A stretch of 42,583 bases of DNA from Bacteroidaceae bacterium. Lineage in GTDB: Bacteria; Bacteroidota; Bacteroidia; Bacteroidales; Bacteroidaceae. The notes beneath the pieces were generated by a model, which was not told the DNA's origin, made no database searches, and saw nothing but the letters and a program-made list of their open reading frames with translations. The stretch is from assembly GCA_017453465.1 (NCBI GenBank), contig JAFTEV010000070.1:1-42583 (forward strand). Reading direction: 5' to 3'. Within the stretch, counting starts at the first letter, position 1; each line of letters opens with the position of its first letter. Positions 817-3,058 of this stretch are shown piece by piece. The position numbers were made by a program, and so were the translations under genes.

Positions 817-972
817 ATGGAAGCAACAAGAAAGAGATATTCAAGGGATGTAATCCAAGAGACATTTCGCAAGATGCTTGCTGACAAAAAGTCGATTCAT
901 AAATATGTGAAGAAATATGGAACACTCAGTGGATTTCCTGATGCAACGGTTCGATTCGCTAAACCACTATGA
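817..972 (+). CDS. Small basic protein (51 aa) coupled to the toxin-antitoxin array
   Basis: A 51-residue ORF with a clear ATG at 817. The peptide starts MEATRKRYSRDVIQE, is rich in Lys and Arg in its first half, and ends VRFAKPL. I cannot assign a function. Its stop overlaps an in-frame ATG of the next ORF in an ATGA arrangement (969-972), so the two could be translationally coupled, although the repeat evidence favours 1002 as the antitoxin start. Its position as first gene of the array suggests a regulator or extra component, but that is inference. It is too short for default gene finders and could be missed. Confidence 0.5.
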   Translation: MEATRKRYSRDVIQETFRKMLADKKSIHKYVKKYGTLSGFPDATVRFAKPL

Positions 973-980
973 ATATTACG

Positions 981-1168
981 ACCCCAACATATAACAGGAA
1001 TATGAGCACTATCGCCCTAAACAACCTTTGGAATTACATACAGTCTCTGGCATTGTCCAATTCAAACAAAGACTGGTTAGCCGGCAAGCTGATTGAGTCC
1101 AAGGTGGAAGACATAGACGAAGAAGCCAGACGCGAAGAAACGCTATACAGTATGTTTGGAGCCTGGGC
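981..1168 (+). repeat. Antitoxin 5' module repeat, copy 1
   Basis: First of three direct repeats. It begins with ACCCCAACATATAAC, continues 21 bp to the antitoxin ATG, and covers about the first 56 codons. The first 147 bp match copy 3 with three differences. The match to copy 2 extends to 188 bp, ending after GCCTGGGC. Confidence 0.95.
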
Positions 1169-1262
1169 TGACGATTCCAACTTTCCTGTCATGGAAGAAG
1201 CAATCAGAACCGGAAGAACTTCAGGAATAACACGCCATATTGTGGCTTTTGATGAGACATGA
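1002..1262 (+). CDS. Antitoxin of cassette 1, VapB-like
   Basis: An 86-aa small protein directly upstream of a PIN toxin. Residues 1-34 (MSTIALNNLWNYIQSL...) are nearly identical in the three antitoxins of the array, and such N-termini are familiar from Bacteroidales TA loci. The C-terminal part differs, but ends in a SGITRHIVAF stretch resembling SGITRKIRAF of antitoxin 2, probably the toxin-binding segment. The start at 1002 is chosen because the repeat places the same ATG 21 bp inside all three copies. An upstream in-frame ATG at 969 overlaps the previous stop. The antitoxin would neutralise the PIN RNase and probably repress the operon. Confidence 0.8.
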   Translation: MSTIALNNLWNYIQSLALSNSNKDWLAGKLIESKVEDIDEEARREETLYSMFGAWADDSNFPVMEEAIRTGRTSGITRHIVAFDET

Positions 1263-1266
1263 GAAG

Positions 1267-1677
1267 ATGAAAAAATACCTGCTTGATACCAACATTTGTA
1301 TCCATTATATGAAAGGAAGATTTAATCTTGTTCAGAAAGTCCGTTCTGTTGGAGGAAGAAATTGCTATATCTCAGACATTACAGCCGCAGAACTATATTA
1401 TGGTGCAGAATGTTCCCGCGAACCAGAGAAGGAGAAAAAGAAAGTTGAATCATTTCTGGCGGGATTCAAAAGGGTTTCCATATCAGAGGCTATTGCATAC
1501 TTTGCCTTTGTAAAGGCTGCGCTAAGGCGAAATGGAACACTTGTAGATGACTTTGATTTGTTGATAGGCGCGACGGCGGTTTGCCACAATATGGTTGCAG
1601 TAACAGAAAATGTAAAACATATTGGACGCATACCAAAAATACAAGTCGAAAACTGGATAGACAGAAAAGACCAATAA
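1267..1677 (+). CDS. PIN-domain toxin of cassette 1, VapC family
   Basis: A 136-aa PIN-domain protein, the usual VapC size. Acidic residues expected to bind Mg2+ are visible: Asp7 in LLDTN, Glu42 in AAELYYG, and Asp94/95/97 in DDFDLLIGA; a VTEN motif contains Asn115. VapC toxins are endoribonucleases that cut tRNA or rRNA and stop translation. The ATG at 1267 lies 4 bp after the antitoxin stop; an upstream in-frame ATG at 1240 would overlap the antitoxin. The last nine residues (ENWIDRKDQ) and 30 bp of DNA are identical to the end of toxin 2, although the middle of the two proteins differs greatly. Confidence 0.9.
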   Translation: MKKYLLDTNICIHYMKGRFNLVQKVRSVGGRNCYISDITAAELYYGAECSREPEKEKKKVESFLAGFKRVSISEAIAYFAFVKAALRRNGTLVDDFDLLIGATAVCHNMVAVTENVKHIGRIPKIQVENWIDRKDQ

Positions 1678-1864
1678 CCCCAACATATAACAAGAATATG
1701 AGCACTATCGCCCTAAACAACCTTTGGAATTACATACAGTCTCTGGCATTGTCCAATTCAAACAAGGACTGGTTGGCCAGCAAGCTGATTGAGTCCAAGG
1801 TGGAAGACATAGACGAAGAAGTCAGACGCGAAGAAACGCTATACAGCATGTTTGGAGCCTGGGC
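1648..1864 (+). repeat. Antitoxin 5' module repeat, copy 2
   Basis: Second direct repeat. From 1677 to 1864 it matches copy 1. It also shares 30 bp upstream (1648-1677, the end of toxin 1) with the end of toxin 2, so 1648-1823 and 2403-2578 match over 176 bp. The offset from copy 1 is 696 bp. Confidence 0.95.
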
Positions 1865-2015
1865 CAAATGCACAGACAAAAAATTGCAGGATGCAGAATG
1901 GCTTGATGAAATATGTGGGGGCTGGAACGAAGACCCCCGTTCAACAGAAGAAATAAAGGCAGATATACGAAATGCTCGTCAGAGCGGAATCACGCGAAAA
2001 ATAAGAGCTTTCTAA
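1698..2015 (+). CDS. Antitoxin of cassette 2, VapB-like
   Basis: A 105-aa antitoxin. Residues 1-40 are almost identical to antitoxins 1 and 3, and similarity to antitoxin 1 continues through REETLYSMFGAWA to about residue 56. After that it carries about 25 residues of its own (KCTDKKLQDAEWLDE...) before the shared SGITR motif near the C-terminus. This mosaic suggests a common N-terminal dimerisation or DNA-binding part joined to a toxin-specific tail. The start is fixed by the repeat; a longer frame reaching back to 1581 runs through the toxin 1 gene. It ends 3 bp before toxin 2. Confidence 0.8.
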   Translation: MSTIALNNLWNYIQSLALSNSNKDWLASKLIESKVEDIDEEVRREETLYSMFGAWAKCTDKKLQDAEWLDEICGGWNEDPRSTEEIKADIRNARQSGITRKIRAF

Positions 2016-2018
2016 ACA

Positions 2019-2432
2019 ATGAAGAAGTACTTAATAGATACAAATGTCATTATAGAATTGTTGAGAGGCAATCGAAATATCGCATCGTGTATAGCCAATG
2101 CCGGAGTTTCAAACTGTGCAATATCAATTATCACAGACTACGAACTTACATACGGAGCATTCCACGCACAACCAGAATATAGAGAACGAGAAATTGAAAA
2201 AGTACGATCCATACGCGAAAGATTTTCCGTAATAGGTTTACCTGATTCGGAAAAATGGGCAGAAGCAAAGCAACGTTTGCAATCTTCGGGTCTTGGCATA
2301 GACGACTTTGATTTGATTATTGCGGAAACAGCTAAAGAAGGAGGCTACATAGCGGTAACGGATAATGTAAAACACTTGGGTCGCCTTGACGGTCTGCTAC
2401 TTGAAAACTGGATAGACAGAAAAGACCAATAA
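2019..2432 (+). CDS. PIN-domain toxin of cassette 2, VapC family
   Basis: A 137-aa PIN protein with the same active-site plan as toxin 1: Asp7 in LIDTN, Glu42 in YELTYG, Asp95/96/98 in DDFDLIIAE, and Asn116 in VTDN. It is predicted to be a ribonuclease toxin. Sequence between the motifs differs clearly from toxin 1 (for example YREREIEKVRSIRERFS against KEKKKVESFLAGFKRVS), so the two probably need their own antitoxins. The final nine residues are identical to toxin 1 at both protein and DNA level, which points to recombination at the cassette ends. Confidence 0.9.
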   Translation: MKKYLIDTNVIIELLRGNRNIASCIANAGVSNCAISIITDYELTYGAFHAQPEYREREIEKVRSIRERFSVIGLPDSEKWAEAKQRLQSSGLGIDDFDLIIAETAKEGGYIAVTDNVKHLGRLDGLLLENWIDRKDQ

Positions 2433-2578
2433 CCCCAACATATAACAAGAATATGAGCACTATCGCCCTAAACAACCTTTGGAATTACATACAGTCTCTG
2501 GCATTGTCCAATTCAAACAAAGACTGGTTGGCCAGCAAGCTGATTGAGTCCAAGGTGGAAGACATAGACGAAGAAGCC
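2403..2578 (+). repeat. Antitoxin 5' module repeat, copy 3
   Basis: Third direct repeat, 755 bp after copy 2. The cassette start is at 2432 and homology ends at 2578, just after the codons for EDIDEEA. Over 176 bp it differs from copy 2 at only two positions. Confidence 0.95.
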
Positions 2579-2722
2579 CCTGCGCTCAGAACTCAAGAGC
2601 AGCAAGAAGAATATGTGCGCCAAACCTTGACACGAGCCATTTTGGAATGCCGCGAAGACATACGGACAGGAAAAAAGTTGCAAAGTGCCAGAGAACTCTT
2701 GGAAGAAATGAAAACATGGTAA
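2453..2722 (+). CDS. Antitoxin of cassette 3, RelE-type partner
   Basis: An 89-aa antitoxin. Residues 1-41 come from the shared module; from residue 42 (PALRTQEQQEEYVRQTL) it is unlike antitoxins 1 and 2 and is predicted helical, ending ARELLEEMKTW. The change of tail coincides with the change of toxin family, from PIN to RelE-like. This is the clearest sign that the tail sets toxin specificity. The stop overlaps the toxin start by 7 bp (2716-2722), as expected for a coupled pair. Confidence 0.8.
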   Translation: MSTIALNNLWNYIQSLALSNSNKDWLASKLIESKVEDIDEEAPALRTQEQQEEYVRQTLTRAILECREDIRTGKKLQSARELLEEMKTW

Positions 2723-3045
2723 GAATTAAGGCCATAAGAGAGTTTGCTCTGAATCTTCGACGACTGTCAAAAAAATACAGGTCTTTGCAAAGCGACTATG
2801 CTCGTCTGTTGGATGAGTTGGAGGGTAACCCCTACCTCGGAACAGATCTTGGCGACGGAGTCCGCAAAGTGCGAATGGCCATAGCCTCGAAAGGGAAAGG
2901 GAAGAGTGCAGGAGCGAGAGTGATAACATACGTAATAGAAGAGCGAGAAGATGAAATCATCATACACTTGCTGACCATTTACGACAAGAGCGAAATCGAA
3001 AACGTTTCCGACCAGTTTATACGAACATTGATAAAACAAATATAA
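2716..3045 (+). CDS. RelE/ParE-family toxin of cassette 3
   Basis: A 109-aa basic protein with the layout of Bacteroidales RelE/ParE-superfamily toxins: an N-terminal helical hairpin rich in Lys and Arg (REFALNLRRLSKKYRSL), the NPYLGTDLGDGVRKVRMAI strand region, and a C-terminal IIIHLLTIYDKSE strand with a final helix. Such toxins usually cut mRNA on the ribosome or poison gyrase; which applies here cannot be told. The ATG at 2716 is preferred over an upstream in-frame ATG at 2647, which would lie deep inside the antitoxin. Its stop merges into the array boundary sequence. Confidence 0.85.
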   Translation: MVRIKAIREFALNLRRLSKKYRSLQSDYARLLDELEGNPYLGTDLGDGVRKVRMAIASKGKGKSAGARVITYVIEEREDEIIIHLLTIYDKSEIENVSDQFIRTLIKQI

Positions 3046-3058
3046 CCCCAACATATAA
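3045..3058 (+). repeat. Terminal boundary copy of the cassette repeat
   Basis: ACCCCAACATATAA occurs here once more after the third toxin, without the antitoxin module. The same 14 bp start the copies at 981, 1677 and 2432. It therefore flanks every cassette on both sides. Confidence 0.9.

What the first reader, a model, noticed from the sequence alone, without database searches (positions are those of the whole stretch)
817..3058. Modular toxin-antitoxin array: one antitoxin front end joined to three different tails and toxins
Three consecutive cassettes carry an almost identical antitoxin 5' module. Over the common 147 bp, copies 2 and 3 differ at 2 sites and copies 1 and 3 at 3. Each then switches to its own tail and toxin (PIN, PIN, RelE-like). 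Identity includes synonymous sites, so the modules were recently duplicated or converted, while the toxins are old and divergent. Because all copies are in the same phase relative to the ATG, recombination between modules would always leave an intact antitoxin-toxin pair. This looks like a system for swapping toxin cassettes under a common control domain.
Basis: partly seen in the sequence, partly recalled or inferred. Interest (0 to 1): 0.88.

Follow-up and report, generated by a model that had tools for sequence, protein, structure and literature searches.

The report
Antitoxin array sharing one copied head
Three neighbouring toxin-antitoxin pairs in a Bacteroidales-type genome carry a nearly identical antitoxin front end joined to different toxin-matched tails, a DNA-level snapshot of how bacteria recombine antitoxin parts, although type II antitoxins were already known to be modular.

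Summary
Three cassettes (antitoxin starts 1002, 1698, 2453) share a 147-bp block differing at 3, 2 and 5 sites, then switch to unlike tails and toxins: two VapC-type PIN proteins and one RelE/HigB-2-like. Copies 2 and 3 also share 29 bp upstream (ends of toxins 1 and 2). A 14-bp motif bounds every cassette (4 copies, none elsewhere in the assembly). The shared head, about 33 residues and a predicted helical hairpin, has no Pfam or NCBIfam match over cut-off. It fronts antitoxins of RelE, YoeB, YafQ, ParE and PIN toxins in Bacteroidales (88 of 399 family genomes, weak hits included). Tails track toxin class (106 of 107 nearest neighbours), heads loosely (81 of 107). Two other groups show heads shared by unlike tails at 83-94% DNA identity, ending near codon 36-42. 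Antitoxin 2 has two GxW tail motifs (1 of 24 VapC-class antitoxins), read as a fusion scar. Best reading: a TA island, probably one operon, whose heads were recently homogenised by ordinary recombination or conversion. No dedicated shuffling machinery was found; near-identical tandem heads occur in 1 of 399 family genomes. New variant of a known kind.

The parts
401..408 (+). only TANNTTTG motif on the + strand before the array (Bacteroidetes -7 consensus, recalled); candidate operon promoter
817..972 (+). small leader ORF (51 aa), its end overlaps an ATG at 969; orphan here
   Evidence: relatives in 2 of 250 other family genomes, L224 (E 2.6e-6) and L225 (E 0.005); none in 44 other genus genomes
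981..994 (+). junction motif ACCCCAACATATAA, copy 1
1002..1262 (+). antitoxin 1: shared head plus VapC-class tail (one GxW motif); may start at 969
1267..1677 (+). toxin 1, VapC-type PIN protein
1677..1690 (+). junction motif, copy 2
1698..2015 (+). antitoxin 2: shared head, the first part of a cassette-1-type tail, then its own VapC-class tail (two GxW motifs)
2019..2432 (+). toxin 2, VapC-type PIN protein, 43% identical to toxin 1; its last 30 bp are identical to the end of toxin 1
2432..2445 (+). junction motif, copy 3
2453..2722 (+). antitoxin 3: shared head plus RelE-class tail
2716..3045 (+). toxin 3, RelE superfamily, nearest solved relative HigB-2
3045..3058 (+). junction motif, copy 4, after the last toxin with no head behind it

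Best explanation
A three-unit type II toxin-antitoxin island, probably read as one operon. Each antitoxin has an N-terminal helical-hairpin head (about 33 residues), a flexible linker and a toxin-class-specific tail that neutralises the toxin encoded next. The head is a common Bacteroidales antitoxin part. In this island one head, with its leader and (for copies 2 and 3) the end of the preceding toxin gene, was copied between units by homologous recombination, unequal crossing-over or gene conversion, so three antitoxins with older, unlike tails now share one head. Shown: the identities, the gene order, the tail-to-toxin-class association, the second GxW motif in antitoxin 2. Inferred: the copying route and direction, one transcript, that the head serves dimerisation or operator binding so that the three antitoxins are co-regulated, and that each tail neutralises its own toxin. 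Expected consequence: events between heads would delete 696, 755 or 1451 bp and leave intact pairs.
For: Array heads are 97-99% identical at DNA level; 46 other same-genome head pairs reach 85.9% at most (loci with genome handles L001-L107 only). The nearest tail has the same toxin class in 106 of 107, the nearest head in 81 of 107, permuted mean about 27 (related sequences, so not a probability). Antitoxin 2 has two GxW tail motifs; of the other 23 VapC-class antitoxins 19 have one and 4 none; its closest tail relatives L101 and L104 have one. The copied tract of copies 2 and 3 includes the toxin end, so copying happened within the tandem. Two other head-sharing groups. Model of antitoxin 3: helices 3-15 and 20-32, pLDDT under 50 at 34-41, tail helices 48-71 and 79-88. 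0 of 3 array heads have TANNTTTG upstream, 108 of 134 others do.
Against: One MAG-like assembly (84.97% complete, 6.04% contaminated); no reads or second assembly seen. Donor undetermined: antitoxin 3 has about 8 extra residues at its join relative to relatives, and the nearest outside head is class 3 by score but class 1 by identity. Heads are short, so the 26 of 107 cross-class nearest heads may partly be noise. The structure model is weak (pLDDT 68.4, pTM 0.34). No binding or toxicity data.
Confidence: 0.72

Rival explanations
1. A dedicated cassette-exchange system: the 14-bp junction motif or the head is a site at which TA cassettes are inserted and removed by a recombinase.
For: Four motif copies bound three cassettes, n+1, and the motif occurs nowhere else in the assembly. 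Partial matches to the integron integrase model suggest tyrosine recombinases in the genome.
Against: No integron integrase over its cut-off, 0 of 1 genome; the 14 control genomes also ring below cut-off. In the three aligned pairs of the two other head-sharing groups similarity ends near codon 36-42 and no such motif is seen. No empty or differently filled site was found.
Confidence: 0.1
2. Tandem duplication of one TA pair followed by fast divergence of tails and toxins with the head held constant by selection.
For: Toxins 1 and 2 are both VapC-type and 43% identical.
Against: Only two synonymous differences in the heads. Toxin 2 is 54% and 51% identical to G079 and G177 loci but 44% to toxin 1; toxin 1 is 50% identical to a G285 locus; nearest tails lie in other genomes. 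Toxin 3 is of another class. Heads elsewhere vary (median 59.6% DNA identity in 39 same-genome pairs of other genomes).
Confidence: 0.08
3. Assembly or binning artefact: separate loci joined through a shared short head.
For: 108 contigs, 6.04% contamination; repeats can misjoin. In a related MAG a contig ends inside a head copy (L197).
Against: The heads differ from one another at 5 sites; longest exact repeat 118 bp; all six genes are open and in working order. Misjoining would still need near-identical heads to exist.
Confidence: 0.1

Closest known systems
Modular type II antitoxins and TA partner swapping (Makarova 2009 PMC2701414; Ernits 2023 PMC10440598; passages seen only)
   Same: One regulatory domain joined to different toxin-binding parts; TA pairs of different classes lie close together in islands.
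   Different: Here the sharing is seen at DNA level inside one array, at synonymous sites and into the upstream gene's end; the head has no family match over cut-off.
Panacea (PanA) hyperpromiscuous antitoxins (PMC8832971, listing and abstract start only; PMC10440598 passages)
   Same: One antitoxin domain found with many unrelated toxins.
   Different: Panacea can neutralise toxins itself or with an added domain; here the short head is shared and the tail goes with toxin class. No Panacea-named match.
tRNA(fMet)-specific VapBC and HigB-2/RelE pairs
   Same: Toxins 1 and 2 match VapC models, toxin 1 solved VapC, toxin 3 solved HigB-2.
   Different: The antitoxins match no VapB, RelB or HigA model over cut-off; VapC matches are below the curated cut-off.
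Integron TA cassettes
   Same: Small units bounded by a repeated short motif, n+1 copies.
   Different: No integron integrase over cut-off; the motif lies in the antitoxin leader (attC form recalled, not searched).
CDI/Rhs orphan tail arrays (recalled, not searched)
   Same: Constant front, variable back, homology that allows swaps.
   Different: The constant part here is an antitoxin, not a secreted toxin.

Membership tests
Type II toxin-antitoxin system | small antitoxin gene directly before or overlapping a toxin gene of a known toxin family | tested here: met
   gaps of 4 and 3 bp and a 7-bp overlap; PIN, PIN and RelE-superfamily toxins
Type II toxin-antitoxin system | toxin arrests growth and antitoxin protein neutralises it | not testable with these tools
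   needs expression tests
tRNA(fMet)-specific VapC | PIN domain with full-length match to the family over its cut-off | tested here: inconclusive
   NF047863 E 1.5e-35 and 7e-20, but 122 and 72 bits against a cut-off of 140; Pfam PIN over cut-off for both; full-length match of toxin 1 to solved VapC 6ifc; toxin 2 not compared with solved structures
RelE/HigB-2 toxins | match to the family | tested here: inconclusive
   PF06296 25.8 bits, cut-off 27; HigB-2 chains E 3e-9; no NCBIfam match
Panacea antitoxins | Panacea domain | tested here: inconclusive
   no Panacea-named Pfam match at E up to 1 for the three antitoxins; whether this Pfam copy holds the model was not checked
Integron cassette array | integron integrase in the genome | tested here: not met
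   TIGR02249: 8 partial matches, none over cut-off; assembly about 85% complete
Known antitoxin N-terminal families (AbrB, RHH, Phd/YefM, HTH) | match to a family model | tested here: not met
   no antitoxin model at E up to 1 for the array antitoxins; among the 19 members of A3 one weak match each to RelB-like NF048017 (E 0.0085) and RelN NF050107 (E 0.055), none in Pfam

The most novel reading that the evidence does not exclude
The head is an undescribed antitoxin domain that also works as a recombination seam: because its DNA is kept alike across cassettes and its C-terminal linker tolerates in-frame joins, Bacteroidales lineages repeatedly reload a resident antitoxin head with new tail-toxin pairs, and arrays such as this one are live populations in which cassettes are gained and lost.
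Probability: 0.17. Interest if true: 0.75.

Novelty: new variant of a known kind. Interest (0 to 1): 0.5.

Why it matters
Antitoxin modularity is usually inferred from distant families. Here the joins are recent enough to read at DNA level, with a candidate scar (antitoxin 2) and a linker where joins seem tolerated. It gives a concrete test bed for whether antitoxins with the same head but different tails cross-dimerise, co-regulate and stay specific, and it points to an unmodelled head domain found in 88 of 399 family genomes (E up to 0.01).

Tried and rejected
No mobile carrier found: the antitoxin 2 protein gave no match in plasmids and one weak match in phages, 31% of the query in an unannotated 5.4-kb record. 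A 55-aa head query in genome contigs: 155 stretches matched a peptide pattern, none confirmed (this mode finds close relatives only). Viral contigs: 14 stretches, none confirmed, with A1; 27 stretches, one confirmed, with A2. Leader ORF: no match in plasmids or phages. PADLOC: no match for P0002-P0006; antitoxin 1 was not given. Solved structures for the head: nothing credible. No fold search was run because the model is weak.

Rejected idea: that cassette 3 is the donor of the head. I noted this from G027 (note), but the alignment shows about 8 extra residues at its join. Rejected: that the CAMVMF01 loci L194 and L197 are the same kind of array; they are repeats along most of their length with decayed genes. 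G696:C23 holds two tandem RelE-type pairs with heads 72 of 90 nt alike. G336:C5 holds a tandem pair with heads 65.6% alike. Toxin classes are my own BLAST clusters: of 139 antitoxins 107 fell in the four large clusters; 22 had no downstream ORF of 75 aa and 10 had single unlike neighbours, and these 32 were left out of the 107. The order-level loci were not added to those counts. Papers: searches (25 of 313 listed; 4 of 4; 10 of 74; 15 of 25; 12 of 78; 10 of 10; 1 of 1) listed none whose title or abstract start is about this head or such an array; passages of two papers were read.
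Full report
What is there. The window is contig C56 of a 108-contig assembly of 3.16 Mb, 84.97% complete and 6.04% contaminated. Positions 817-3058 hold a leader ORF and three antitoxin-toxin pairs on the + strand. The antitoxins start at 1002, 1698 and 2453. Over 147 bp the copies differ at 3 (1 v 3), 2 (2 v 3) and 5 (1 v 2) sites. Copies 1 and 2 remain alike for 187 bp, 181 identical. 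Copies 2 and 3 are identical from 29 bp upstream of the block, in the last codons and stop of toxins 1 and 2. The motif ACCCCAACATATAA lies at the start, at both inner junctions and after the last toxin; a search of the assembly with one mismatch allowed finds only these four.

What the genes are. Toxins 1 and 2 are PIN proteins over Pfam's cut-off and match tRNA(fMet)-type VapC models below the curated cut-off; toxin 1 aligns over its length to solved VapC. Toxin 3 matches Pfam RelE just below cut-off; its nearest solved relative is HigB-2. The antitoxins match no antitoxin model. AlphaFold of antitoxin 3 with 19 sequences gives helices 3-15 and 20-32, pLDDT under 50 at 34-41, and tail helices 48-71 and 79-88, with low overall confidence (pLDDT 68.4, pTM 0.34).

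How common the head is. The head is in 19 of 45 genus genomes, the window's own included; outside the array, matches are 37-62% identical. A profile finds it in 88 of 399 family genomes at E up to 0.01, 147 matches by my sum of the listed counts, the weakest doubtful, and in 9 of 344 order genomes, the window's own included. The genome-contig scan gave 64 loci, all titled Bacteroidaceae, Prevotellaceae, Prevotella, Bacteroidales or Bacteroidetes; many titles name ruminant guts. From 212 loci I collected 139 distinct head-bearing antitoxins; 107 have a toxin in four BLAST clusters of 34, 25, 24 and 24. Nine of ten chosen downstream proteins match RelE, YoeB, YafQ, ParE, PIN_3 or PIN; one matches nothing.

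Head and tail behave differently. The nearest tail belongs to the same toxin class in 106 of 107 antitoxins, the nearest head in 81 of 107, against a permuted mean of about 27 for both; a first count with identity scores gave 83 of 107 for heads. The sequences are related, so these are descriptions, not probabilities, and a 33-residue head gives noisy neighbours. Each array tail finds its nearest relative in its own toxin's class. All three array heads share one nearest outside head: a class-3 one by score, a class-1 one by identity. The same VapC family also occurs behind other heads: of 36 non-window VapC loci looked at, 16 have an upstream antitoxin matching the head model at E up to 1 and 20 do not (my count, one duplicate locus set aside).

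Recent copying. Of 49 same-genome head pairs in loci L001-L107, the three array pairs are 97-99% identical at DNA level; the other 46 reach 85.9% at most. Among all pairs of the 139 with heads at least 82% identical in DNA (168 pairs), 24 have unlike tails by my score limit: two array pairs and 22 that fall in two further groups. In the first group RelE-type L158 or L156 share 87-91% with ParE-type L157, L161 or L172, with no visible similarity before the ATG and none after about codon 36 in the pair shown (L158 v L157); the toxin genes of L156, L157 and L161 look broken, so among these the pair with both toxins whole is L158 v L172 (87.9%). In the second group L084 (VapC) shares 94% and 87% with L032 and L083 (PIN), from about 9 bp before the ATG to about codon 42; L032 is itself broken and the toxin of L083 runs off its contig.

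A scar. Antitoxin 2 has the head, a stretch like the start of tail 1 (ending in GAW), and then a VapC-class tail with its own GGW. Its closest tail relatives L101 and L104 have one GxW. Among 24 VapC-class antitoxins it is the only one with two; 19 have one and 4 none by that pattern. I read this as an in-frame fusion of head plus part of tail 1 onto a foreign tail. The donor among the three cassettes is not settled: antitoxin 3 also has about 8 extra residues at its join.

Expression. Within 100 bp upstream, 108 of 134 other head loci have TANNTTTG, the Bacteroidetes -7 motif (recalled), while none of the three array heads does; the only such motif on the + strand before the array is at 401. 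One transcript is therefore likely but not shown.

How unusual the array is. Near-identical tandem heads are seen only in the window among the matches of 399 family genomes (first-look candidates are capped per genome). Other tandems are a G336 pair (heads 65.6% alike), a G696 pair of RelE type (72 of 90 nt), and decayed repeats in CAMVMF01. No integron integrase reaches its cut-off in the genome. Nothing found suggests a dedicated swapping machine; recombination between repeats of up to 118 exact bp would be enough.

Comparison. Antitoxin modularity and partner swapping are established (PMC10440598 passages), as are TA islands of mixed classes (PMC2701414 passages). What is added is a DNA-level case inside one array, a candidate scar, and a head domain without a match over cut-off in Pfam or NCBIfam. 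I file it as a new variant of a known kind.

Noticed in passing
window 76-171, 15247-15320, 38305-38378: Repeated, partly palindromic element (GTAGGCAAT...GCGCGAC), 61-92% identical to the reference copy.
   Followed up: no
window 25303-25420: 46-nt inverted repeat arms around 21-nt tandem units.
   Followed up: no
window 3134-9013 and 9130-15105: Two adjacent giant ORFs (1959 and 1991 aa) with signal-like starts; the first has a sub-threshold dockerin match, the second none.
   Followed up: partly
window 17875-17933: SAM-II riboswitch over gathering score.
   Followed up: no
window 15412-15454 and 16070-16112: 43-nt repeat, 93% identical, with a TACCTTTG stretch, perhaps duplicated promoters.
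   Followed up: no
window 817-972; L224, L225: The leader ORF is an orphan here; a distant relative in L224 precedes a protein of about 160 aa (recalled as resembling DUF6934), hinting at a lost partner.
   Followed up: partly
L194 1-1460, L197 2005-3195: Decayed tandem units with the same head domain, 87-95% alike, with a contig ending inside a head copy.
   Followed up: partly
G696:C23:31673-32342 and six more places: An order-level genome with eight head matches, two in tandem.
   Followed up: partly
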